The notes under the pieces: generated by a model
What the model was told of the DNA's origin: nothing
The model's database searches: none
The model's input: only the letters and a program-made list of their open reading frames with translations
Shown: positions 16,765-62,413 of the stretch, in pieces
How positions within the stretch are numbered: the first letter of the stretch is position 1
Layout: each line of letters begins with the position of its first letter
Source: an uncultured Bacteroidia bacterium
Lineage (GTDB): Bacteria > Bacteroidota > Bacteroidia > Bacteroidales > F082
Length of the DNA stretch: 64,000 nucleotides
Reading direction: 5' to 3'
Assembly: GCA_902801625.1 (NCBI GenBank)
Contig: CADCJI010000014.1
Span: 62,001 to 126,000 of the forward strand
Translations under genes and position numbers: made by a program

Positions 16765-18573
16765 TTATTCTAATACAAATTTCTGTGTTTCGCCTGCAAA
16801 GGTGATGAAATACAATCCAGCAGGCAGATTATCGATATTGATTTGTTGTTTTTCAGCGGTAATGTGGCCTTGCAGCAGGGTTTGCCCCGTGAGGTTGGTG
16901 ATGCGGTATTCGGTTTCCGTTTGTAGAGATGTGGCGTGCCGCGTCTCTACAAACAAAACGCCGTTGGTGGGATTGGGATAGACCGCATAACCATTGTCGG
17001 TAGGTTCGTCAAATGTGGTGTTCACATCAGTAGCTTCCACTGCCAATATGTCCATAATCACATCACAACCATCGAGTTGCGAGAGTAATTCGAAATTTTT
17101 CCAAATACTTCCTTTGTTATCCGATTTACCAACCATGTAAATGTCATCGAAACCACCATAAATTCGTTGAATGCTTTGGTTTAAAGACAATTGTAATAAT
17201 TCATGCCCATTCTTGAGTACACCATAATACATCCCGTGTGGATAATAAAATGTAAAATAGTAATCATCTTGATATGCATAGAGACAATTAATAAATTCAA
17301 GCGGGGAAAAATTAGAGATACGTTCATTGTCTTTCCAAATGGTTGGCATGGAAATGATCTCAAATCCATTATCATAATTTAAATAACCATTTGTGAATAT
17401 TGAACCATTGTCAACGGAGATTTCTTTTGCCCATGATGCCCTTTGTACGCCAGAAGGTTCCTGTTTGTAAAACAACTGCGATGCTTTCCATACGCTGGCT
17501 TTATTGAGGCTGTCAGTGATGTATCCACAAAAATAGGGGATATTGGTGTTCTTGTCCACATCGGCATCGTAGATGAAGCTGTCGTATAGCCCGTCGCCAA
17601 GCACCCAATGCGGAGTAAAGTCCGGACCTCGCCATACAGTGGCCACTTTTATGCCTTCTTCGGTGGTCGTGTTTCCTACATAGAAGAGAGTGTCACCCAG
17701 GCAATAGATGTCCTTGATAGTAACACCGTTATGGCCTTCGGTTGACAAGTATAGTTCATCGTTTTTCCAAATTTCTGTTTGCAGGGTGGACGAGTTTGCC
17801 GAATAAACTACCATCCAATAGATATTTCCTTCCGAATCGTTTGCAATCTTGTAAGGAGTGATTTGCTTGCCCGTGACTCTGATGGAATGTAACAAAGCAT
17901 TGTTTTTGTAGAGCTTGGCGGTTCGGGTTGCGGAATTGTTGTCTTTGTAACCAATGGTATACAAATCGGGGACGATAGGGGAAGGAGAAGGGGTTTCAAT
18001 CTCGGTTTGTTCCCAGCGCAGGGGATAATTAGGAATGGTGCAGTAGGCCATGTCGTCGCAGTAAGCCGACACAATGTCAAACACTCCTGGGCCTGGTTGA
18101 TATCCGTTACCATTCAGGTTTCTATACATATAGATTTTTGCCCAAGCATAGTAAATATCGTCATTCACGGTTTTGCGAAAACCCATTATGAATTCCATGT
18201 ACTGATCGGGATACCATAATAACTCCCATGTGTCATTGGCTTCAGCCCATAATGGATGATTTGGAATAATAGAGTCATTCTCATCCATATAACCGTATGA
18301 ATAGATGCTGTTGTAACAGTAGCGAAAATCCCATGAAGAAGTAACATACACATATCGAACTTGAGTTGAATAATGCGCTTTTATATACATCTTGAAATCT
18401 ATCGTTCCATCTTGGTCTAGGTCGATTTTCAAAGTGTCATGGGAATCGTAAGGAGACAACTCTTCAATGCACAAGTCTGGCTCAAAGTCGGTGTAGAGGA
18501 TAGGGCTTTCTTGGGCTTTCAGATTTATAGTGGCCATAAACAAGACCGTCAAGATCGTAAGTAATTTTTTCAT
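16765..18573 (-). CDS. T9SS-sorted surface protein with VWK/IWK repeats
   Basis: A 602-residue secreted protein. It has a signal peptide (MKKLLTILTVLFMATINLKAQ, to about 21), an N-terminal domain with the calcium-type loop IDLDQDGTIDFKMYI and a FRKTVNDDIYYAWAKIYMYR strand, shared with the lipoprotein at 15245-16165. A propeller-like middle follows, with recurring EIWKNDELYLS, TVWRGPD, SVWKASQLFY, TIWKDNERIS and SIWKNFELLS units. A T9SS type A sorting domain ends it (VYPNPTNGVLF ... YRITNLTGQTLLQG ... GLYFITFAGETQKFVLE). Within the sorting domain, residues VETRHATSLQ are encoded by a 28-bp palindromic repeat. It is the third gene of a minus-strand run with a TPR regulator. Its ligand or partner is unknown. 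Confidence 0.85.
   Translation of the reverse strand: MKKLLTILTVLFMATINLKAQESPILYTDFEPDLCIEELSPYDSHDTLKIDLDQDGTIDFKMYIKAHYSTQVRYVYVTSSWDFRYCYNSIYSYGYMDENDSIIPNHPLWAEANDTWELLWYPDQYMEFIMGFRKTVNDDIYYAWAKIYMYRNLNGNGYQPGPGVFDIVSAYCDDMAYCTIPNYPLRWEQTEIETPSPSPIVPDLYTIGYKDNNSATRTAKLYKNNALLHSIRVTGKQITPYKIANDSEGNIYWMVVYSANSSTLQTEIWKNDELYLSTEGHNGVTIKDIYCLGDTLFYVGNTTTEEGIKVATVWRGPDFTPHWVLGDGLYDSFIYDADVDKNTNIPYFCGYITDSLNKASVWKASQLFYKQEPSGVQRASWAKEISVDNGSIFTNGYLNYDNGFEIISMPTIWKDNERISNFSPLEFINCLYAYQDDYYFTFYYPHGMYYGVLKNGHELLQLSLNQSIQRIYGGFDDIYMVGKSDNKGSIWKNFELLSQLDGCDVIMDILAVEATDVNTTFDEPTDNGYAVYPNPTNGVLFVETRHATSLQTETEYRITNLTGQTLLQGHITAEKQQINIDNLPAGLYFITFAGETQKFVLE
16919..16954. repeat. GTAGAGACG palindrome inside a T9SS sorting domain
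   Basis: The 28-bp core 16923-16950 has arms CTCTAC/GTAGAG and extends to matching GTTTGTAGAGA / TCTCTACAAAC arms. On the coding strand it reads V-E-T-R-H-A-T-S-L-Q in frame. Confidence 0.85.
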
Positions 18574-21948: not shown

Positions 21949-21999
21949 GTAGAGACGGTGTACACGCCGTCCCTATAAGGCCATTTTTACGTCTCTACC
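21949..21999. repeat. GTAGAGACG-type repeat at the 3' end of the zinc-ribbon gene
   Basis: GTAGAGACGG (21949-21958) faces CCGTCCCTAT (21967-21976), and a further ACGTCTCTAC lies at 21990-21999. The minus-strand copy GGTAGAGACG supplies the TAG stop codon of the zinc-ribbon gene. Confidence 0.65.
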
Positions 22000-34149: not shown

Positions 34150-34185
34150 TGTAGAGTCGGTGTCACACCGACTCTACAATTTTTA
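34150..34185. terminator. Hairpin terminator between GH97 and rlmN (GTAGAG-type repeat)
   Basis: TGTAGAGTCGGTG (from 34150) and CACCGACTCTACA (to 34178) form a long stem followed by ATTTTTAT on the plus strand. It has the arms of the GTAGAGACG repeat family but with GTC in place of ACG. The T-run overlaps the rlmN stop codon. Confidence 0.8.
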
Positions 34186-52680: not shown

Positions 52681-53778
52681 CTATTTCTTCAGCGCCTCCT
52701 CAGCCTGTTTCACCGTGCCGCGCTCACCGTTGATAAAGGCGATGACGAAGGCATCCTTAAAGCCTAAATCGCGCACTTCGTTCTGTCGTGCCAAGGCTTC
52801 AGCTTTGGTCAGAAAACGGCCTGAAATGTAGCGATAAGCGCCGTTGTATTCGTAGACTTCCACTTCTTTCACCCCTTTAAAAGCCTTGTCTGTAACGGGC
52901 ACTTTCTTGTTCAAGGTGGAGAACTGAACCGAAAAATAGGTGTCTCCAACGACTGAAGAAGGCTTTTCGTCACTGGTCTCAGGCTTGCTGGAAACATGGT
53001 TCTCGGCTTCAAATTCCCGCTTGTACTCTTCAAAGGCGCGGTACAAAGCCAAAGCCATTTGCGTTTGTCCTTTTTCGGAATTGAGGAACTGTTCTTCTTT
53101 TGTATTGTTGATAAAGCCTAGTTCCACTAGGATGCTCGGCATGGAGGTTTTCCAAAGTACCAGGAAACCAGCCTGTTGCACACCTCTGTCGTTGCGACCT
53201 TTGCTGGCAAACTGTTTCTGCACCTTGCCTGCCAAATCAAGGCTTTGGCTTTGGTAGAGGCTTTGTGAGAGCGAGAAGAGGATATAGGCTTCGGTGCTGT
53301 TGGGATCGAAGTTGTCGTAAGCATCGGTGTTGTCTTCCAACAGGATGGCCGCATTTTCCTTCTTAGCAACGGCAAGGTTTTTCTCGTTTTTCGATTCACC
53401 CATCACGAAAGTCTCCGTGCCAGAGGCCGAGTTGGGTGTCTCCGTCGAATTGCAGTGAATCGAGATGAACACGTCGGCATTGTTGCGATTGGCAATGGCG
53501 GCACGCTCGCTCAGTTCGACGAATTTGTCTTTTTTTCGCGTGTAGATTACTTTCACATCGGGAAGGTTCTCTTCGATATATGCTCCAAACTTGAGCGCGA
53601 CAGCCAAATTGAGTGTCTTTTCGTTGGTTACCTTGCCTAAGGCCCCCGTGTCCTTGCCGCCATGACCTGCGTCGATGACGATGGTTTGTATCTTTTCACC
53701 TTTTTGGGCAAAGGACCATAAAGGCATTAGAAAAAGCAGGGCTAAAACACCAAATCGCGAAATCTTTCGTTCTATCAT
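52681..53778 (-). CDS. N-acetylmuramoyl-L-alanine amidase (Amidase_3) with C-terminal SPOR-like part
   Basis: A 365-residue exported protein with signal MIERKISRFGVLALLFLMPL and cleavage near WSFAQ. The Amidase_3 zinc site is IVIDAGHGGKDTGALG (His), ISIHCNS (His) and SILVELGFINN (Glu), over about residues 30-240. The C-terminal about 90 residues (YFSVQFSTLNKKVPV ... GAYRYISGRFLTKAEALARQ) resemble a SPOR peptidoglycan-binding domain. It cleaves the amide bond between MurNAc and the stem peptide, probably in cell separation. It is divergent from lptD with only 79 bases between start codons. Confidence 0.92.
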   Translation of the reverse strand: MIERKISRFGVLALLFLMPLWSFAQKGEKIQTIVIDAGHGGKDTGALGKVTNEKTLNLAVALKFGAYIEENLPDVKVIYTRKKDKFVELSERAAIANRNNADVFISIHCNSTETPNSASGTETFVMGESKNEKNLAVAKKENAAILLEDNTDAYDNFDPNSTEAYILFSLSQSLYQSQSLDLAGKVQKQFASKGRNDRGVQQAGFLVLWKTSMPSILVELGFINNTKEEQFLNSEKGQTQMALALYRAFEEYKREFEAENHVSSKPETSDEKPSSVVGDTYFSVQFSTLNKKVPVTDKAFKGVKEVEVYEYNGAYRYISGRFLTKAEALARQNEVRDLGFKDAFVIAFINGERGTVKQAEEALKK

Positions 53779-53811
53779 ACTGAGTTTGTTTATTTATGCG
53801 CGAAGAAAAAC

Positions 53812-53820
53812 TATCTTTGC
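53812..53820 (+). promoter_or_regulatory. -7 element (TATCTTTGC) of lptD
   Basis: TATCTTTGC at 53812-53820, with TTTG at 53785-53788 as possible -33 box (spacing 23). It lies 37 bases before the TTG start at 53858. Confidence 0.65.
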
Positions 53821-53857
53821 AGCGGATTTCTACCGTACAAAAGTAATCGTTTTCACG

Positions 53858-56740
53858 TTGACAAAACGCACGGCACATAAGAATTATTTTCATAAGGCGG
53901 CCTTTTCTTTGCTCACCGCCATGGTCGTGTTGTTTTATGGGTGTAAACAATTATCTCATACTGAGAAAGATAAATACACAATCAAGCCTCCAACGGTAGA
54001 CAGCACGGTTGTCGTTCAAGAACGCATCACAGACACGATTACGATAACGCTGGATAGCATCGCTGCGTTGGACACAATTCCTGTTTTGGACACGGTTCAT
54101 TCATTGGATTCCATTGCGGTTTCTGAATCGGATTCGATTAATGTAGAGACGCAAAATTTTGCGTCTCTACAAGATTCGATTAATACCGATTCCTTGAAAA
54201 AGGTAAAACCTCAGCGCATTGAGCCGCGACGTTCGGAGTCGGCCATCGAGACGAAGGTGATTTGTTCGGCTGTGGATTCGTCGTACCGTGACATGAACAA
54301 GAAGAAAATCTACTATTTCGGTCAGGCCGAAGCCAAATACGATGACATCACTTTGACAGCGGCATGTCTGGAATTCGACCTTGAGACCAGCACTTGCCGT
54401 GCTTACGGTGTTGCCGATTCGTTAGGCAAGTTGCAAGGGCGACCTGTCTTTACACAAGGGGAAAGCACTTTTGAGGCCGTGGAAATGCTATACAACTTCA
54501 AGACAAAAAAAGGTATCATCACCAAGGTTTGGACTGAAGAGAACGATGGCTATTTGCATGGTGAGCGCATCAAGCGCATGGACGACAACACCATCAACAT
54601 CCGTTCGGGAGGCTACACTACCTGTGACCTCAAGGAGGATCCGCACTATCAGTTCAAGTTCACCAAAGCCAAGGTCATCCCAGACGATAAGATTGTCACG
54701 GGTCCGATTTATTTGACCATTTCCGACATCCCATTGCCCCTGGCTTTACCTTTCGCCATCATTCCCAACACGAAAGGCAAGAAGTCGGGCCTTATCATAC
54801 CCACCTACGGTGAATCGGCCAATAGAGGTTTCTATTTGGAAAACGGTGGCTATTATTGGGCCATCAACGACTATTACGACTTGCAGGTCTTGGGCGACAT
54901 CTACACACGCGGTTCATGGGGCATCAAGCCGACATTCCGTTACAACAAACGCTATCGCTTCAATGGCTCGATGGCTTTGGGCTTTGCCGTCAACAAAATA
55001 GGAACGAAAGGTGCCGCCGATTATCAGGAAAGCACTGATTTTAAGATCCAGTGGACCCACAAGCAAGACCCCAAAGCTCATCCGAGGCGCAATTTTTCGG
55101 CCAATGTCAACATTGTGAGCTCCAACTTCAATAAATACAACGCCCAAACCACCACCGACCAGCTGAGCAACACTTTCAATTCGAGTATTTCCTACCAGAC
55201 GAATTTTGCCGGTAAGGTCTACCTCACCCTTAATGGAAGCCATAGTCAGAACACACTGACGCGTCAGGTGACGGCTTCGTTGCCTGAGCTTACCTTGTCT
55301 GTCAACACGTTTTATCCTTTGAAAAACGTGGGCAAAGCGGGCAAAAAACGTTGGTACCAAAGCTTGAGCATGGGCTATACATTGAATGGAAAAGCTTACA
55401 TCAATGATGTGGACACAGTGCTTTTCCATGGCATCTCCGATGACTTCGGCGGTTGGGCGAGGGAGATGCTTCGCGACCATGTGCAGACGGGTATTTCGCA
55501 CAGGATGCCCATCAATGCCACTATTAAACTCTTTAAGCATTTCTCGTGGACCAATTCGCTGACATTGAATGACTACATGTATTTCAAGCGCATTGAACGT
55601 CAATGGATTAATGACAGTGACTCGACAGGACATCTGCAGACTGACACTATCCATGGTTTCCGTAATCTAGTGGACTTCAATGCAAGTTCCAACCTGACGA
55701 CCAAAATCTATGGTATGGTGAACTTTGCCCAAGGTCCCATCCGCGCCATTCGCCACGTCTTCACGCCAACCATCGGTTTTACCTACCGTCCCAACTTCGG
55801 CGACCCGAAATGGGGTGTATATGGTTCATATGTCGACGGCAATGGCAAAGAGCAGGTTTACAATAAGTTCAGTAATGCGCTTTATGGCACGCCATCGCAA
55901 ACGCAACAAGGGCTGTTGACCTATAATTTTAATAACAACTTGGAAATCAAGGTGCCGTCGAGTTCCGACACCATCACAGGGGTGAAAAAAATACCCATTT
56001 TGGAATCGTTCAGCATTTCGGGCAATTACGACCTGACCAAGGACTCGGTCAACTTTTCTCCTATTTCGATTAGTGGGCGCACCACATTGTTCAAGAAGTT
56101 AGGTATCAACTATAGCAGTTCATGGGATCCCTACGCCGCCGACTCGTTGGGTCGTCGCATCAATCGCTTTGAGATTGCTGACAATGGGCGGTTGTTCCGA
56201 AAGACGGGCTCGTCTTGGCGTTTCAGTTTGAATTATAGCTTCAACCAAAACGACCTCAAGAAACTGCAAGGCAAGAAAGGTAGTCAGGAATTGCGTGACG
56301 AAATCAACGAAAATGCTAGAAAATCAGGCAATTTCGACCCAGATGAATTGAACGAAATCTTGGGTAATCCCAATGCTTACATTGACTGGACCACGCCTTG
56401 GTCACTCTCTGTGAGCTACAACCTAACCTACACGACATCAATTGCATACGCTGCCTTTATGGGCATTGCTACTAACACCCATGTGCATACCATTGGCCTC
56501 AACGGTGATATTAGCATTACGCCCAAGTGGAAGGTGACCTTCTCGACGGGTTGGGACTTTGTCAACAACAAACTTTCCTATACCAACCTCAGCGTATACC
56601 GCGACCTGCACTGCTGGGAGATGCGCTTCAACTGGATTCCTATCGGCAGCTACAAGAGCTGGAATTTCACCATCAATGTGAAAGCCCAGGCGTTGAAGGA
56701 CTTGAAGTATGAGAAGAAGAAGGATTATCGTGATAATTAG
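53858..56740 (+). CDS. lptD: LPS assembly outer-membrane protein LptD (OstA-like)
   Basis: About 960 residues. The frame is open upstream but passes the promoter, so the start is taken as TTG 53858, giving a lipoprotein-like N-terminus (TAMVVLFYGC). A Ser/Asp-rich linker with repeated LDSIA/LDTIP units follows (about residues 40-125), then an OstA beta-jellyroll domain (YYFGQAEAKYDDITLTAACL; GRPVFTQGESTFEAVEMLYN). A large C-terminal barrel ends with MRFNWIPIGSYKSWNFTINV. LptD places LPS in the outer leaflet. Inside the linker, VETQNFASLQ is encoded by a 28-bp palindromic repeat flanked by direct repeats. The neighbouring divergent amidase is a common arrangement in Bacteroidota. Confidence 0.9.
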   Translation: MTKRTAHKNYFHKAAFSLLTAMVVLFYGCKQLSHTEKDKYTIKPPTVDSTVVVQERITDTITITLDSIAALDTIPVLDTVHSLDSIAVSESDSINVETQNFASLQDSINTDSLKKVKPQRIEPRRSESAIETKVICSAVDSSYRDMNKKKIYYFGQAEAKYDDITLTAACLEFDLETSTCRAYGVADSLGKLQGRPVFTQGESTFEAVEMLYNFKTKKGIITKVWTEENDGYLHGERIKRMDDNTINIRSGGYTTCDLKEDPHYQFKFTKAKVIPDDKIVTGPIYLTISDIPLPLALPFAIIPNTKGKKSGLIIPTYGESANRGFYLENGGYYWAINDYYDLQVLGDIYTRGSWGIKPTFRYNKRYRFNGSMALGFAVNKIGTKGAADYQESTDFKIQWTHKQDPKAHPRRNFSANVNIVSSNFNKYNAQTTTDQLSNTFNSSISYQTNFAGKVYLTLNGSHSQNTLTRQVTASLPELTLSVNTFYPLKNVGKAGKKRWYQSLSMGYTLNGKAYINDVDTVLFHGISDDFGGWAREMLRDHVQTGISHRMPINATIKLFKHFSWTNSLTLNDYMYFKRIERQWINDSDSTGHLQTDTIHGFRNLVDFNASSNLTTKIYGMVNFAQGPIRAIRHVFTPTIGFTYRPNFGDPKWGVYGSYVDGNGKEQVYNKFSNALYGTPSQTQQGLLTYNFNNNLEIKVPSSSDTITGVKKIPILESFSISGNYDLTKDSVNFSPISISGRTTLFKKLGINYSSSWDPYAADSLGRRINRFEIADNGRLFRKTGSSWRFSLNYSFNQNDLKKLQGKKGSQELRDEINENARKSGNFDPDELNEILGNPNAYIDWTTPWSLSVSYNLTYTTSIAYAAFMGIATNTHVHTIGLNGDISITPKWKVTFSTGWDFVNNKLSYTNLSVYRDLHCWEMRFNWIPIGSYKSWNFTINVKAQALKDLKYEKKKDYRDN
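54131..54184 (+). repeat. GTAGAGACG palindrome in lptD with 12-bp flanking direct repeats
   Basis: A perfect 28-bp palindrome (54143-54170) is flanked by GATTCGATTAAT at 54131-54142 and again at 54173-54184. The coded peptide is DSIN-VETQNFASLQ-DSIN. Confidence 0.9.
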
Positions 56741-56800
56741 TTGAGAGTTTAGAGTTGAGAGTTTAGAGTCAGTTGAAAGTTGATAGTTGAGAGTTGACAC
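56741..56800. repeat. Short-period GAGTTTAGAGTTGA repeat
   Basis: Imperfect tandem copies of GAGTTTAGAGTTGA-like units directly after lptD, in a spacer that also contains CATTCAACATTCCGCATTCC. No gene is seen. Confidence 0.65.
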
Positions 56801-56845
56801 TTCGCGTCATTCAGCATTCAACATTCCGCATTCCGAATTAATCAT

Positions 56846-56854
56846 TATCTTTGT
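56846..56854 (+). promoter_or_regulatory. -7 element (TATCTTTGT) of the double-redoxin gene
   Basis: TATCTTTGT ends 28 bases before the ATG at 56883. Confidence 0.55.
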
Positions 56855-56882
56855 CGCCTAAAACCTAATAAAATAAACAACT

Positions 56883-58745
56883 ATGAAAAAAGTATTTACC
56901 CTTCTCCTCGCGCTGGCCATTGGTTTTGGCCTGAAAGCGCAATGCCCTCTCACACAAGCCGTTGACTTTACTGCTACGGATGTTCATGGCACAGAAGTCC
57001 ATTTGTTCGATATCCTTGATGGTGGACAATATGTGCTTGTTGACTTCTTCTTCGTCAACTGCGGCCCCTGCCAAATAGCTACACCGAAAGTCGTCGAATC
57101 CTATTATGCGATGGGTTGCAACCAGCACGATGTGTTTTACATAGAAATTTCTGACCGCGACAGCGATGCGGCTTGCCTCAATTGGGTGAACAACTATGGT
57201 GTGGAATACCCAACTATCAGCGGTGCAGCTGGCGGTTCTGGCATCAGTAACACCTATCAAATCGGAGCTTTCCCCACAGTTATCCTCATTGCGCCGGACC
57301 GTTCCATCGTCATCAATGACTTGTGGCCCATCAACAACGCCCAAAGTGTCATCACCGCTTTGGAACAACACGGACTGCAGCAGCATGACTGCAATGGCGC
57401 GACCTACGACCCGCAGGTGAGCATCACGGTTGACCAAGTGCTGGAGACCGAGGTCACGGCCACCTTCACGCCTAATGAAGACTGCGCATCATACGCTTAC
57501 ACCTTGGCTACTGAGGCAGAAATCCAGGAATGGATGGGTATTGCAGGTCTCGACCTCCCCGAATACCTTTGGAACCACGGTATGCCTGGCTCGGGAGTCA
57601 TCTCCAACACCTTCAGCGACCTGACGCCCAACACGGAATATGTAATCTACGCAGTGCCTGCCGACATTGACGGCAACCTCGGTGAGGTCGTCCAAGAGCC
57701 GGTTACAACTACGCCGAGTGGCCCTTCTGACATCATGCCCGACTTCACCGCCACCGACATCGACGGCAACGAAATCCACCTCTACGACATTCTTGATGCA
57801 GGTCAGGCCGTGCTGATCAACTTCTTCCTCACTGGGGACCCATATAGCGAGGCTCCTATGGCCGATGTGGTCGAAGCCTACCGCCTTTATGGCTGCAACC
57901 AAAACGATGTGTTCTTCATGGGAATCTCACCCAATGGCCATGACAACGAATGCCAAACTTGGGTTGACCAATTCGGTGTGCAGTATCCCACCATCAGCCG
58001 CGACGGCGGTGGTAACGATATTGCACAAGACATCCCCGTGGGTTACTATCCCACCATCATGCTCATCCGTCCCGACCACACCTTTGCAGTGCGTGACATC
58101 TATCCGCCTACGCTGGAATATATTATTAATGCCATGAACGCAGAAGGTTATGAGCAACATGAGTGCCCATTTGAAGAAACGCTGACTTTCAGCATGGATA
58201 CAATTGAATTGCCTTATGCCACACCTACTGAAATCACTGTTTATAACAACACTGCAGAGGATGCCGTCATCCAAAGTATACAAGAAACCAACGAATGGAA
58301 TAATTTCTGTTTGATTACTTTCCTTATCAACGGCGAAGAATATTGGTGCCCTGACGATCTTGAAATCACCTTACCGAGAGGTGAATCTCTCACTATGTTT
58401 ATGGTATGCGATATGGTTGGGAAAAATGCTCCTGAATATATCGAAGACCTTGTCACCGTGTCAAGTAACTTGCCTGACGCCAGTTTCACGGTGATGGTAG
58501 AACACGCATGGTCGGTGGATGAAAATGAGGCTTCGGCCACGCTTTATCCCAATCCCGCCAATGAAAGCGTGACCTTGAAGGGCGGAAACCTTGGCATGGT
58601 GCGCGTCTTCAACGCCCTCGGCCAGAAGGTGGATGAATACGAAGCTAATGGCAGCGAACTCCGCATCAACACGACAGGCTATGAGAACGGCGTTTATGTC
58701 GTGAAGGTTGGTGAGAAGACGATGAGATTTGTTGTAAAACATTGA
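56883..58745 (+). CDS. T9SS-sorted protein with two thioredoxin-like domains, the second lacking cysteines
   Basis: A 620-residue secreted protein with signal MKKVFTLLLALAIGFGLKAQ. The first redoxin domain (about residues 25-160) has VDFFFVNCGPCQIATPKVVE, a CxxC active site, and the cis-Pro region AFPTVILIAPD. A fibronectin-like segment (about 175-280) follows, then a second redoxin domain (about 285-435) with the same order of motifs, in which the active site reads INFFLTGDPYSEAPMADVVE with no cysteine. A further beta domain follows, and a T9SS-type C-terminus (LYPNPANESVTLKGGNL ... GVYVVKVGEKTMRFVVKH). The duplicated domains share DFTATD(I/V)xG-(N/T)E(I/V)HL(F/Y)DILD at their start. Role unknown; extracellular disulfide chemistry or binding is possible. 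Confidence 0.88.
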   Translation: MKKVFTLLLALAIGFGLKAQCPLTQAVDFTATDVHGTEVHLFDILDGGQYVLVDFFFVNCGPCQIATPKVVESYYAMGCNQHDVFYIEISDRDSDAACLNWVNNYGVEYPTISGAAGGSGISNTYQIGAFPTVILIAPDRSIVINDLWPINNAQSVITALEQHGLQQHDCNGATYDPQVSITVDQVLETEVTATFTPNEDCASYAYTLATEAEIQEWMGIAGLDLPEYLWNHGMPGSGVISNTFSDLTPNTEYVIYAVPADIDGNLGEVVQEPVTTTPSGPSDIMPDFTATDIDGNEIHLYDILDAGQAVLINFFLTGDPYSEAPMADVVEAYRLYGCNQNDVFFMGISPNGHDNECQTWVDQFGVQYPTISRDGGGNDIAQDIPVGYYPTIMLIRPDHTFAVRDIYPPTLEYIINAMNAEGYEQHECPFEETLTFSMDTIELPYATPTEITVYNNTAEDAVIQSIQETNEWNNFCLITFLINGEEYWCPDDLEITLPRGESLTMFMVCDMVGKNAPEYIEDLVTVSSNLPDASFTVMVEHAWSVDENEASATLYPNPANESVTLKGGNLGMVRVFNALGQKVDEYEANGSELRINTTGYENGVYVVKVGEKTMRFVVKH

Positions 58746-58751
58746 TTTACT

Positions 58752-58829
58752 ATGGCCTATGGCTAATGACTATGGCCGCTTTTACATTTATTGAAGCGGC
58801 CATAGTCATAGGCCATGTGCCATTGGCCA
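58752..58829. repeat. Inverted repeat (GGCCATAGTCATAGGCCAT type) after the redoxin gene
   Basis: GACTATGGCCGCTT (58768-58781) and AAGCGGCCATAGTC (58794-58807) are perfect arms. ATGGCCTAT and ATAGGCCAT extend the stem outside a small bulge, and GGCCAATG-like pieces flank it. It may terminate transcription between the two plus-strand genes. Confidence 0.7.
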
Positions 58830-58841
58830 AAATAAAAAACC

Positions 58842-60095
58842 ATGAAAATAATCATTCTTCGTTCCTCGTTCCAAACCGATGAATTTGTCAGGACAGAATA
58901 TGCCGAATTGATTCAACGGCTGGAAAATGATTGTCATGCCGTTATTAATATCATTGGTGATGAAATGGTAGAGACGGTGCATGCACCGTCTCTACAAACA
59001 ACAATACCCGATGCATTTATGATTGCCACCGGCGGCGTGGAAAACCTGTTCAAACGCATTTGGTCCGCCATCGATATTGAAACCATGTATGGGCCATCGC
59101 ACCAAAAAACCGTCACCATGATCGCTGACGGACGCAACAATTCCTTGGCGGCCTCATTGGAGATATTGACCTATTTGGGCAACATCGGGGTGGAAGGAAA
59201 GATTTTGCATGGGATGAATGATGAGATTGTTTCGGCCGTTGTAGAGACGTACGGCCGTACGTCTCTACAGGGCCGAATCGGGTTGTTCGGTCAACCCTCC
59301 GATTGGCTCATTGCCAGCGGGGTGGACCGCGATTACCTCCGTCAACGATACGATATCGAAACCGTCGACATAGATTTACAACGCCTCATGGATGGCATCA
59401 AGGTGGTGCCTCAAACTGAGGCCGAGGAGGTGGCGCAAACTATGGTGAAATGTTCCAAGGCCGTCAAAGAGCCTTCGGATACCGATATGCTGGAAGCCGC
59501 CAAAGCCTATCTCGCCATCAAGCGCATCTGTCAGGAGGAGCGCTTGGATGCCATGACCATCCGCTGCTTCGACATCGTGAAAGCCTGTGGCACGACGAGC
59601 TGTTTGGCTTTGGCATTGCTCAACGATGAAGGCATCGTGGCAGGCTGCGAAGGTGATATGCAGACATTGATGAGCATGTATTTGGCCAAACGTTTGTGCG
59701 GCGAGGTGGCATTTATGGCCAACCCGTCGCAACTCACGGATAAAACCTCCATGTTGGCACACTGCACCATCCCGCTGACCATGTGCAATGAGACTGTAGT
59801 GCGCTCGCATTTCGAGTCGGGTATAGGCGTGGCCATACAGGGTGTGTTGCCACTGACCGACTACACCTTATTTAAATGGGGTGGCCCAAAATTAGACCGT
59901 TATTTTGTCACCGAGGCACAAGCCATAGAGGCACCTTACAGCAACCATTTCTGCCGCACGCAAATCACGCTCGATGTGAATCTGAAACCTTATCTGCTCC
60001 AACACTCCATCGGCAACCACCATGTCATCATCCGTGGAACGCACGCCGACGCAATCCGCCGATTTATGCAGTCCAACGGAGTTCAGAACGTGTAA
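58842..60095 (+). CDS. L-fucose/L-arabinose-isomerase-like protein with two repeat-derived peptides
   Basis: A 417-residue cytoplasmic protein. The C-terminal part (about residues 225-400) is like the fucose isomerase C-terminal region, with IRCFDIVKACGTTSCLALAL, GIVAGCEGDMQTLMSMYLAK and HCTIPLTMCNETVVRSHFES. The N-terminal half (TIPDAFMIATGGVENLFKRI; KTVTMIADGRNNSLAASLEI) fits the same superfamily. Two peptides, VETVHAPSLQ (residues 43-52) and VETYGRTSLQ (residues 134-143), are encoded by perfect 28-bp palindromic repeats. A sugar-isomerase activity is plausible but the substrate is unknown. Its last 13 bases overlap the end of the convergent patatin gene. Confidence 0.8.
   Translation: MKIIILRSSFQTDEFVRTEYAELIQRLENDCHAVINIIGDEMVETVHAPSLQTTIPDAFMIATGGVENLFKRIWSAIDIETMYGPSHQKTVTMIADGRNNSLAASLEILTYLGNIGVEGKILHGMNDEIVSAVVETYGRTSLQGRIGLFGQPSDWLIASGVDRDYLRQRYDIETVDIDLQRLMDGIKVVPQTEAEEVAQTMVKCSKAVKEPSDTDMLEAAKAYLAIKRICQEERLDAMTIRCFDIVKACGTTSCLALALLNDEGIVAGCEGDMQTLMSMYLAKRLCGEVAFMANPSQLTDKTSMLAHCTIPLTMCNETVVRSHFESGIGVAIQGVLPLTDYTLFKWGGPKLDRYFVTEAQAIEAPYSNHFCRTQITLDVNLKPYLLQHSIGNHHVIIRGTHADAIRRFMQSNGVQNV
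58968..58995 (+). repeat. GTAGAGACG palindrome in the isomerase-like gene, copy 1
   Basis: Perfect 28-bp palindrome with core GTGCATGCAC, read in frame as VETVHAPSLQ. Confidence 0.9.
59241..59268 (+). repeat. GTAGAGACG palindrome in the isomerase-like gene, copy 2
   Basis: Perfect 28-bp palindrome with core TACGGCCGTA, read in frame as VETYGRTSLQ. Confidence 0.9.
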
Positions 60096-62413
60096 CCGAA
60101 TGAGAAATAAGCTCCAAAACGGTTCTCCGAATCTCTTCTCGACCAATGTGCTGTCAGTGAAATGGGACCCAAAGGACTGTTGTAGGAATACTTCAATCCC
60201 GCGCCTTGTGCTTCAAGGGGCTTAAACATATTATCAAACTGCATCAGAGGTACCAGATCCCAATTTATCAACAAATTGTACATGGCAGTCAGATAGTGGT
60301 TTCCATAAAAGTTGTAACGTAAGTCGGCACGAAACACACTGGCATTGTCATCTGCCGACTCCACAGAGTTAAACCCGATGAAAGGCATTTGGTCATAGAA
60401 ATGGCGCCCTGAAATCTCGCTGCCATAAACGTTCCACAAGTTGAAATATCCAGGTATCCCTGACACATAGCGGCCATACACTTGAGGTATAATGGTGAAT
60501 CTCCCGCCTCCTGGTGTGATGTAGGATTGAAAACTGTATGCGAGATCAAGGTATCCCTTTTCTGTAGTAAATCCTTCTTCAGATTCAGAATGATGATTCA
60601 AGTTGATATGATAACGACCTGTCAAGCTAGCCTTGATGCCATGGTTGGCAAAATAGGTGTCATCTAGATTGTCGAATTCCATGTTGACAAACGGCGAAAC
60701 CAGCTGGTTGGACACGAAGAATAAGGAATCAAAAATATTACCAGTTATAGAGGAAAGATCAAATGTCGTATTAGTGTATGATACACCGACTTTAGTGTTG
60801 AAGTTGAGTAGATGGAACTGTGAGATATAGCCACTTAGCTTATTCTGTCGGTAACTCAGATTGAACATCTTACCCACGATAGCTGATGTTCTGAAATGCT
60901 CGTTGCGGTAGTCGTATGCCAAGTTAAAGTTGGCCACGGATGGCAAAGAATAGGTATAGGTGAGATTGATTTTTGGACTGTAGCTGAGCTTGAAGTTAGC
61001 GTTCAACTTTGAGCCGTTGAATTTCTTCTCGTTGAGACCAACGTGGAGCAACAGAGCAGCCCCTTCTTCAGTGTCATAGCGTACACCTAGACCGAAAACA
61101 TGGGGTTTGGCATATTTCATATCGATATTCAAGTCGTAGGCATCCGAAAGCTGATCATTCTGGTGGATGGAATCGCATTCCTTGATTTGATAAGTGATTT
61201 CATCGAAGCAGCCTGTACCACGATAAATCTTAACGGCGTTTTCGATGTCTGCTTCCGAATACGCTTTATCGACCTTCAGTCCACCTTTTCGGATCAGCCA
61301 ATTGCTTTCCCGAGGGCTCACATTGTTGAAGGTGATGGAACGGATGAGTACTGACTCTTTGTCCAAATTCTTGGCGTTAGGCGCACGAAGTGTCTTGCTG
61401 ACAGGATGCCCCGCCGAGGCATCGACGGCCTTTTTGATGGCCAGGAGCTGGTCGTGGTATTCGCTGGCTTTTTTGTAGCCTCTACCCACGAGTGTGTCGA
61501 TGGCATCTGGGGTGAAGCTGAGCATGCCGAAGCCGCTGATGTCAGGAATGATATGGACATCGCACAACTGACGGTTTTCCACTCGCTTTGCACTTGTGCT
61601 GTTGGTGACCAACCGGAGAAACACTTGGGGCAACGACTTCAAATCGTTGATTGTGATATCCTTAGTGGAAGTAACTTCAATACCAATGATGATATCAGCG
61701 CCCATGTCACGAAGCACATCGGCGGGGAAGTTGTTCACCAAACCGCCGTCAACGAGTACTTTGTCACCAATTGTGACAGGAGAGAATACGCCTGGAATGG
61801 CCATACTGGCCCGCATGGCTGTAGGCACGCTACCACTACGCAACACCACTTCCTTGCCGGTAATCATGTCGGTTGCTACGCAGGCAAATGGGATGGGCAG
61901 GTCGTTAAAGTCCATTTCCTCCTGATAACCGACACATAAGTCGTTGAATAAGTTGATAAGTGAACTGTTGTTGACGTAGGCACTAGGCAACTGGCTGATA
62001 AACTTAGAATTAGGGTCGTTGTCGAAGAGACTTTCCGTGTTGAAAGGTACTTGAAGCATTAGAGTGCTGTTACGTTGCCTCATTTCCTCCGACATCATGG
62101 AGCGGTCAATCTTATTGCCGATATACTCTGACCAGTTCATGCCTGCAATGAGTTCGGTAAGCTCATCGGGAGAATAGCCTAAGGCATAAAAGCCACCGAT
62201 GATGGATCCCATGCTGGTGCCGGCCACATAATCAATGGGGATGCCCAATTCTTCGATGTATTTCAGTGCGCCGATATGCGATGCGCCTTTGGCACCACCA
62301 CCGCCTAAGACCACACCGACTTTGAGGCGGGGCGGTTGGATAGTAGTATTGGTTTGGGCTTGGGCCACGAGAGAAACTAAAAGAGTTGCGATGAGTAAGT
62401 AGATTTTTTTCAT
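60083..62413 (-). CDS. Patatin-like phospholipase with POTRA and outer-membrane barrel
   Basis: A 776-residue protein with signal peptide MKKIYLLIATLLVSLVAQAQ. The patatin domain (about residues 30-230) has the oxyanion loop GVVLGGGGAKGASHIG, the Ser in AGTSMGSIIGG and the Asp in KVLVDGGLVNNFPADVL, so the Ser-Asp dyad is complete. A POTRA-like part (about 365-430, LIRKGGLKVDKAYSEADIEN) and a BamA/TamA-type beta-barrel follow to the end, which closes with RFGAYFSFGYTF (C-terminal Phe). The order patatin-POTRA-barrel is that of PlpD-type (type Vd) proteins. It has a -7 element 21 bases upstream. Its substrate, and whether the patatin part is surface exposed, are unknown. Confidence 0.92.
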   Translation of the reverse strand: MKKIYLLIATLLVSLVAQAQTNTTIQPPRLKVGVVLGGGGAKGASHIGALKYIEELGIPIDYVAGTSMGSIIGGFYALGYSPDELTELIAGMNWSEYIGNKIDRSMMSEEMRQRNSTLMLQVPFNTESLFDNDPNSKFISQLPSAYVNNSSLINLFNDLCVGYQEEMDFNDLPIPFACVATDMITGKEVVLRSGSVPTAMRASMAIPGVFSPVTIGDKVLVDGGLVNNFPADVLRDMGADIIIGIEVTSTKDITINDLKSLPQVFLRLVTNSTSAKRVENRQLCDVHIIPDISGFGMLSFTPDAIDTLVGRGYKKASEYHDQLLAIKKAVDASAGHPVSKTLRAPNAKNLDKESVLIRSITFNNVSPRESNWLIRKGGLKVDKAYSEADIENAVKIYRGTGCFDEITYQIKECDSIHQNDQLSDAYDLNIDMKYAKPHVFGLGVRYDTEEGAALLLHVGLNEKKFNGSKLNANFKLSYSPKINLTYTYSLPSVANFNLAYDYRNEHFRTSAIVGKMFNLSYRQNKLSGYISQFHLLNFNTKVGVSYTNTTFDLSSITGNIFDSLFFVSNQLVSPFVNMEFDNLDDTYFANHGIKASLTGRYHINLNHHSESEEGFTTEKGYLDLAYSFQSYITPGGGRFTIIPQVYGRYVSGIPGYFNLWNVYGSEISGRHFYDQMPFIGFNSVESADDNASVFRADLRYNFYGNHYLTAMYNLLINWDLVPLMQFDNMFKPLEAQGAGLKYSYNSPLGPISLTAHWSRRDSENRFGAYFSFGYTF

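What the first reader, a model, noticed from the sequence alone, without database searches (positions are those of the whole stretch)
58968..59268. Four in-gene palindromes always read in the same frame as VET....SLQ
The 28-bp palindromes at 16923-16950, 54143-54170, 58968-58995 and 59241-59268 each have arms GTAGAGACG/CGTCTCTAC (one arm base changed in the first) and different self-complementary 10-bp cores. All four are translated as VET-xxxx-SLQ, although a palindrome has six possible reading frames and at least some of the others are also open. The two strands read alike, so frame choice, not orientation, is being selected. Two copies are in one isomerase-like gene, 245 bases apart. A repeat that behaves as a portable peptide module is unusual.
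Basis: seen in the sequence. Interest (0 to 1): 0.82.

Follow-up and report, generated by a model that had tools for sequence, protein, structure and literature searches.

The report
Palindromes that swap their cores
A Bacteroidales-type bacterium and its relatives carry dozens of copies of a 28-letter DNA palindrome, some inside open genes, whose ends stay fixed while the middle is replaced wholesale by another self-matching middle, so short repeats appear to overwrite one another in place, even within protein-coding genes.

Summary
The four palindromes are real but belong to a REP-like family: 48 exact copies in this genome, present in 95 of 99 genus genomes. 'Always VET' fails: by a long-ORF rule 16 own copies read VET, 4 the other open frame, 28 lie outside. 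The third frame contains TAG. Arms are conserved as DNA, not peptide: four-fold sites differ 6.3% in arms, 38.1% elsewhere in the gene.

The surprise is elsewhere. At a fixed site in orthologues the 10-bp core is either kept or replaced as a block. In 48 comparisons with near-identical flanks, 21 cores differ at 0-1 bases, none at 2-3, 27 at 4-10; 1,092 control windows never exceed 5. One intergenic site has 199 of 200 flanking bases identical and all 10 core bases different. Double-sided arm changes are compensated 16 to 1.

I infer that copies overwrite each other by hairpin-dependent template switching or short-tract conversion. Linkage to RAYT-type transposases was tested and not found. 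The enzyme and the direction of exchange are unknown.

The parts
58968..58995 (+). Palindrome, site 1 of the isomerase-like gene, core GTGCATGCAC, read VETVHAPSLQ (residues 43-52)
   Evidence: arms within 4 mismatches at this codon position in 41 of 70 orthologues, 28 of the 30 closest
59241..59268 (+). Palindrome, site 2 of the isomerase-like gene, core TACGGCCGTA, read VETYGRTSLQ (residues 134-143)
   Evidence: within 4 mismatches in 46 of 70 orthologues, 30 of the 30 closest
59076..59103 (+). Site 3: decayed relative here (IETMYGPSH...), an exact-arm palindrome in G063, G095 and G078 at the corresponding place
   Evidence: alignment; low-confidence loop 83-88 in the model
58842..60095 (+). 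Isomerase-like gene (417 aa) that holds sites 1-3
   Evidence: NCBIfam sulfoquinovose isomerase model 2.7e-14, far below its cut-off; Foldseek to L-arabinose isomerase 7cxo E 4.9e-21, TM 0.61 by query
54143..54170 (+). Palindrome in the LptD-like gene, core CAAAATTTTG, read VETQNFASLQ
53675..56740 (+). LptD-like gene
   Evidence: Pfam LptD_2, 7.4e-164
16923..16950 (-). Palindrome in the T9SS sorting tail of gene 16765-18573, read VETRHATSLQ
16765..18573 (-). Gene with T9SS type A sorting domain
   Evidence: Pfam PF18962 1.2e-12; TIGR04183 3.2e-11
34151..34177 (.). Intergenic relative with a compensated arm change (GTAGAGTCG...CGACTCTAC); G051 has GTAGAGACG-TAGCGCGCTA-CGTCTCTAC at the matching place (L085:3001)
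21949..21998 (.). Degenerate intergenic relative with an extra inverted arm

Best explanation
The palindromes are copies of a dispersed, REP-like DNA element: arm GTAGAGACG, a self-complementary core (usually 10 bp), and the inverted arm. Most examined copies lie outside long ORFs; some entered genes in frame long ago, in loops or linkers, and have stayed there through speciation (shown). They are kept as DNA rather than as a peptide (shown). They evolve by in-place overwriting: the core at a fixed site is replaced as a block by another core of the family while arms and flanks stay (shown as a pattern), and arm changes on one side are often matched on the other (shown as a pattern). Inferred mechanism: the palindrome folds into a hairpin when single-stranded during replication; a nascent strand that has copied one arm switches template through the 9-nt arm, either to itself, which re-perfects the palindrome, or to another copy, which imports that copy's core, and returns on the second arm. 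VET....SLQ is the commoner of the two open readings, nothing more.
For: 48 exact copies, control 0. Arms within 4 mismatches at the same codon position in 41 (site 1) and 46 (site 2) of 70 orthologues, with different cores. Block replacement: numbers of pairs with 0-10 core differences are 16,5,0,0,2,1,4,9,6,1,4 for 48 pairs against 499,346,178,52,15,2 and then 0 for 1,092 control windows. G063/G077 site 3: 1 of 117 flanking bases and 10 of 10 core bases differ. Intergenic L034/L199: 199 of 200 flanking bases the same, 10 of 10 core bases different; G051 has a third core there. Arm four-fold sites 202/3,199 against 24,387/63,975 in the rest of the gene. Compensated double arm changes 16 to 1; shuffles 2.3 on average, at most 8 in 2,000. 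Pool test positive for two of three cores.
Against: No enzyme, strain-level event or direction of change has been seen. The pool test fails for CACGGCCGTG (p 0.67). Some orthologue differences may be segment recombination: for G000/G119 site 1 the adjoining bases differ too. Asymmetric cores such as TGCCATGGCG persist uncorrected, so self-correction is incomplete. Pairs and genomes are related, so counts are not independent. In the own-G138 comparison only 2 of 22 orthologous copies are replaced. Arms of 9 nt are short for RecA-type exchange (recalled).
Confidence: 0.6

Rival explanations
1. A Y1 (HUH) transposase of the RAYT kind cuts single-stranded hairpins at GTAG and places a new hairpin where an old one stood, so cores are swapped by targeted transposition.
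For: GTAG/CTAC ends as in GTAG REPs (PMC3733652); REPIN-like doublets with GTAG only on the outer side occur; 70 of 99 genus genomes have Y1_Tnp matches.
Against: 0 of 5 own Y1 loci and 3 of 34 fetched Y1 loci in all (5 own, 29 others) hold a copy, one of these with 3 mismatches; from the own density (94 sites in 3.58 Mb) about 3 are expected by chance (inference). Genomes 96-99% complete without a Y1 match keep 14-26 exact copies: G014, G064, G071, G105, G147.
Confidence: 0.2
2. Homologous recombination of longer segments between species carries different cores along; no element-specific process exists.
For: Around site 1 G000, G138, G115 and G126 share a local haplotype (GDEM...SLQTTIPD) with related cores, unlike G119 and G109.
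Against: Cases with unchanged flanks: 1 of 117, 1 of 200. Cores would still have to be diversified first, and cores are bimodal where control windows are not.
Confidence: 0.1
3. Selection on an RNA hairpin (terminator or mRNA structure) keeps the pairing while cores drift.
For: Runs of 5 or more T within 3 nt of an end at 11 of 46, 7 of 51 and 12 of 50 copies, 1.5-1.6% at random places; predicted RNA hairpins of -15.7 to -20.7 kcal/mol.
Against: Block replacement is not drift; the same pairing is kept inside coding genes; named contigs show T runs at only 5 of 96 against 2.3%.
Confidence: 0.05
4. One reading: a portable peptide module VET....SLQ whose reading frame is selected.
For: VET commoner than the other open frame by the long-ORF rule, 53 to 19; sites in loops.
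Against: The second frame is used in long ORFs too (L044, L078, L087); a strict codon-score rule gives 5 to 6; core residues vary between orthologues; arms are frozen at synonymous positions; most copies are outside long ORFs.
Confidence: 0.02

Closest known systems
GTAG-tagged REPs (Di Nocera et al. 2013, PMC3733652; parts 1-3 of 8 and found passages read)
   Same: 20-40 bp palindromic repeats with GTAG, many copies, mostly extragenic, stem sub-families with complementary changes, some copies inside ORFs.
   Different: Here GTAG/CTAC is paired and at both ends; no RAYT linkage found; the text read lists GTAG repeats in Proteobacteria, Cyanobacteria, Chloroflexi and the PVC group, and names Bacteroidetes only for CGTC repeats; in-place core replacement is not described in the parts read.
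REPINs (PMC3116915, PMC8049555; passages seen)
   Same: Doublets of inverted copies with GTAG outside occur in these genomes; non-autonomous sequence populations.
   Different: The family studied here is mostly single 28-bp palindromes, and no RAYT linkage was found.
Rickettsia palindromic elements in genes (passages of PMC3733652 and PMC6649704)
   Same: In-frame palindromes in open genes.
   Different: The Rickettsia elements are said to lose repeat identity with time (PMC6649704); here pairing is kept and cores are exchanged.
Quasipalindrome correction / template switching within one inverted repeat (abstracts of PMC8794818 and PMC8604942)
   Same: Inverted repeats made perfect, compensatory multi-base changes, also in coding DNA.
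   Different: Described within one repeat in the abstracts seen; here cores of a dispersed family appear to replace one another between sites.

Membership tests
GTAG REP (PMC3733652) | 20-40 bp palindrome in many dispersed copies | tested here: met
   28 bp, 48 exact copies, reversed control 0
GTAG REP (PMC3733652) | unpaired GTAG at one end | tested here: not met
   GTAG/CTAC is part of the paired arms at both ends; one-ended forms occur in doublets only or as decayed copies
GTAG REP (PMC3733652) | mostly outside genes | tested here: met
   203 of 275 copies outside long ORFs
GTAG REP / REPIN | RAYT (Y1) gene flanked by the repeat | tested here: not met
   0 of 5 own loci, 3 of 34 fetched loci in all; the list of Y1 matches was cut and not all loci were fetched
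REPIN | inverted doublet as the unit | tested here: not met
   main family is single palindromes; doublets exist beside it
Rickettsia palindromic element | in-frame insertion in open genes | tested here: met
   20 of 48 own copies in long ORFs; orthologues without site 1
Rickettsia palindromic element | repeat identity lost with time | tested here: not met
   core pairs complementary 276 of 340 against 112.8 after shuffling; double arm changes compensated 16 to 1
Intrinsic terminator | stem followed by a T run | tested here: inconclusive
   met by 11 of 46, 7 of 51 and 12 of 50 copies, not by the rest; no transcripts seen

The most novel reading that the evidence does not exclude
The family works as one population of exchangeable hairpin cores: single-stranded hairpins overwrite one another at fixed chromosomal sites through 9-nt arms, a conversion system with tracts of about 28 bp, and inside genes it acts as a hot spot that changes four loop residues at a stroke while keeping the reading frame.
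Probability: 0.4. Interest if true: 0.85.

Novelty: new variant of a known kind. Interest (0 to 1): 0.68.

Why it matters
Whether REPs evolve by gene conversion was asked in the title of a 1988 review (Higgins et al., seen only in the reference lists of PMC3116915 and PMC8266576), and a 2021 paper calls their dissemination mechanisms poorly understood (PMC8266576, abstract passage). These repeats make the question testable: fixed sites, near-identical flanks, cores replaced in blocks. It would also be a source of multi-residue protein change that could look like positive selection.

Tried and rejected
Portable peptide: rejected. RAYT linkage: searched Y1_Tnp in the own genome and the genus; no linkage. 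Rfam: at gathering threshold only a tRNA in the window. Solved structures by sequence: no match for the isomerase-like protein up to E 0.1. Terminator scan of 53000-60500: 10 found, 7.0 expected, none at the palindromes. Target-site duplication: only the 54143 copy was noticed to have a flanking repeat; not tested in general. Pool test: positive for two of three cores, negative for CACGGCCGTG. Three rules for 'in gene' gave different VET:CRD ratios, all reported. Core-class counts on the gene tree: 20 changes in 37 genomes (500 shuffles: mean 26.0, minimum 21) and 21 in 43 (mean 25.1, minimum 21), so some phylogenetic signal remains; segment recombination could also move cores. Assembly artefact: thought unlikely, since 9-bp arms are shorter than usual assembly words and the pattern recurs in many assemblies (inference, not tested). 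Literature: the searches listed no paper that by title or abstract start describes this repeat in Bacteroidales or core replacement at orthologous sites; the library lacks most subscription journals, and one search listed 15 of 313 papers.

Full report
Observation. The window holds the four palindromes as stated and two further relatives at 21949-21998 and 34151-34177. With up to three mismatches 5 matches are found; dinucleotide shuffles give 0.01. The palindrome is symmetric, so both strands give the same three readings: V E T x x x x S L Q, x R D x x x x V S T, and one that contains TAG. Two frames can be open, not six.

What it is. The window's genome (3.58 Mb in 62 contigs, 84% complete) has 48 exact copies of GTAGAGACG-N8-12-CGTCTCTAC; the reversed pattern gives none. 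With a 10-base core 94 sites match with up to three mismatches, control 5. In a spread of 60 genomes of the family 8 have exact copies: the own genome, four of the same genus (16-55 copies) and three of other genera (1-2 copies). In the genus 95 of 99 genomes have it. Two named MAG stretches match G138 loci at 92.9% (L348, RGIG7101, water buffalo abomasum) and 89.1% (L350, RUG11296), and one record (L345, uncultured Bacteroidales) is identical to a G138 locus over 3,028 bases. No genus name was obtained.

Frame. With the rule of an ORF of at least 150 codons and an ATG at least 20 codons upstream, copies are VET, CRD, outside: own genome 16, 4, 28; G051 9, 5, 37; G138 13, 4, 33; named contigs 15, 6, 105 (51 of 55 and 50 of 55 exact copies were fetched for G051 and G138). 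A first gene caller gave 21 VET and 12 CRD, a strict codon-score rule 5 VET and 6 CRD. So VET is favoured at most moderately. Seven of the own VET copies sit at one place in paralogous T9SS tails (YPNPxxxxLxVET....SL), and others in a lipoprotein-like linker shared by several loci. 'Always VET' does not hold.

Orthologues. The isomerase-like gene is found in 75 of 99 genus genomes; 70 were fetched and aligned, five were not. Arms within 4 mismatches lie at site 1 in 41 of 70 and at site 2 in 46 of 70; among the 30 closest orthologues in 28 and 30. A third place is decayed in most but has exact arms in G063, G095 and G078. Some relatives are empty at site 1 (G137, G107, G129, G128). The arms hardly change, also at four-fold sites: 202 of 3,199 comparisons differ (6.3%) against 24,387 of 63,975 (38.1%) in the rest of the gene, for pairs at 10-25% divergence. 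The core changes as a block. Among 48 orthologous comparisons with at most 10 differences in up to 117 flanking bases (60 left, 57 right, a 3-base shift allowed), the numbers of pairs with 0 to 10 core differences are 16, 5, 0, 0, 2, 1, 4, 9, 6, 1, 4; for 1,092 ten-base control windows elsewhere in the gene they are 499, 346, 178, 52, 15, 2 and then zero. The sharpest in-gene case is G063 against G077 at site 3: one flanking base of 117 differs and all ten core bases differ. On a tree of the rest of the gene at least 20 changes of core class are needed for 37 genomes at site 1 and 21 for 43 at site 2; label shuffles give means of 26.0 and 25.1 and a minimum of 21 in both cases. Pairs are not independent, since one genome enters several comparisons.

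The same outside genes. Of 65 own copies in fetched loci compared with 57 of G138 (up to three arm mismatches), 22 are orthologous with both 100-bp flanks at 80% or more: 14 cores identical, 5 with one change, 1 with a length change, 2 replaced; against G051 4 are found, 3 of them with 4 or more core differences. In L034/L199, 199 of 200 flanking bases are the same and the core is CGCCATGGCG in one and GTGTGCACAC in the other; G051 has TAGCGCGCTA at that place. Each is a recurrent core in its own genome: 3 of 46, 7 of 50 and 18 of 51 fetched copies.

Self-complementarity. In 68 distinct in-gene copies (arms within 4 mismatches) arm pairs changed on one side 67 times, on both sides with pairing kept 16 times and on both sides without pairing once; shuffling partners gives 2.3 on average and never more than 8 in 2,000 runs. 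Some of the 16 share ancestry (G118, G122, G125, G144; G147, G149, G153), so independent events are about ten by eye. In G129 a 36-bp perfect palindrome at site 2 has the family core GTGTGCACAC but quite different arms. In exact-arm copies 202 of 230 (own), 239 of 255 (G051) and 224 of 250 (G138) core pairs are Watson-Crick, and most exceptions are G-T on one strand. Such asymmetric cores persist, so correction is incomplete.

Pool. Genomes with GTGTGCACAC (one difference allowed) at an isomerase site have 12.3 further copies on average (7 genomes) against 1.8 (41), p 0.011; CGATTAATCG 6.3 (9) against 0.95 (39), p 0.0065; CACGGCCGTG 1.46 (13) against 1.66 (35), p 0.67. Two of three tests favour import from the genome's own pool. 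Relatedness of genomes is not corrected, and only three core types were tested.

Structure. The model of the isomerase-like protein (38-sequence alignment, mean pLDDT 87.8) resembles L-arabinose isomerases (7cxo, E 4.9e-21, TM 0.61 by query). Residues 45-50 and 83-88, in sites 1 and 3, are two of the three segments below pLDDT 50 (the third is 153-158); site 2 (134-143) spans the end of a helix and the loop to the next strand. The inserts sit where they are likely to be tolerated (inference).

Mechanism. Shown: dispersed family, old in-frame residence, DNA-level constancy of the arms, block replacement of cores, compensated arms. Inferred: hairpin-dependent template switching. A nascent strand that ends in an arm can pair with the complementary arm of the same copy, which re-perfects it, or of another copy, which imports its core; the second arm brings it back. 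Template switching within one inverted repeat is documented (abstracts of PMC8604942 and PMC8794818); the between-copy version is my extension. The main rival is RAYT-type transposition. Linkage was tested and not found: none of 5 own Y1 loci and 3 of 34 fetched Y1 loci in all hold a copy, about what chance would give, and genomes 96-99% complete without a Y1 match keep 14-26 exact copies (G014, G064, G071, G105, G147). REPIN-like doublets with GTAG only on the outer side keep that rival alive. A terminator role is likely for part of the copies: T runs at 11 of 46, 7 of 51 and 12 of 50, 1.5-1.6% at random places.

Known or new. The nearest kind is the GTAG REP (PMC3733652: parts 1-3 of 8 and found passages), which also occurs inside genes. 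This family differs by GTAG paired at both ends and by the lack of RAYT linkage. Rickettsia elements inside genes are said to lose repeat identity (passage of PMC6649704), the opposite of what is seen here. The searches named under Tried and rejected listed no paper on core replacement at orthologous sites. I file it as a new variant of a known kind; the exchange process, if confirmed, is the new part.

Noticed in passing
L225:1501-2307 (G138) and L014:1501-1528 (own genome): In G138 two identical palindromes lie 779 bp apart (start to start) around an ORF of about 230 codons; the own genome has one palindrome, with a third core, joining the two outer flanks. Copies may mediate loss or gain of whole genes.
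   Followed up: partly
L043:1742-1810, L050:1343-1415, L062:2843-2915, L073:441-514 and 1177-1250, L233:3554-3620: REPIN-like doublets: two inverted stems with GTAG only on the outer side, mostly with 9-base cores, beside the symmetric family.
   Followed up: no
L171 (G129), isomerase site 2: A 36-bp perfect palindrome inside the gene with the family core GTGTGCACAC but entirely different arms.
   Followed up: partly
window 16923-16950 and L015, L017, L018, L026, L039, L040, L042: Palindromes recur at one place in the T9SS sorting tail of several paralogous proteins, with differing cores.
   Followed up: partly
G014, G041, G064, G065 (listings): Some species of the genus mostly carry an 11-base-core version (29 bp, CCATAATATGA type), which would not keep frame like the 28-bp form.
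   Followed up: no
L241-L357, named contigs: The same arms occur in Nostocales and a few other phyla; horizontal spread or convergence is open.
   Followed up: no
window 54131-54184: The LptD-gene copy is flanked by a 12-bp direct repeat GATTCGATTAAT (DSIN on both sides), a possible target duplication.
   Followed up: no
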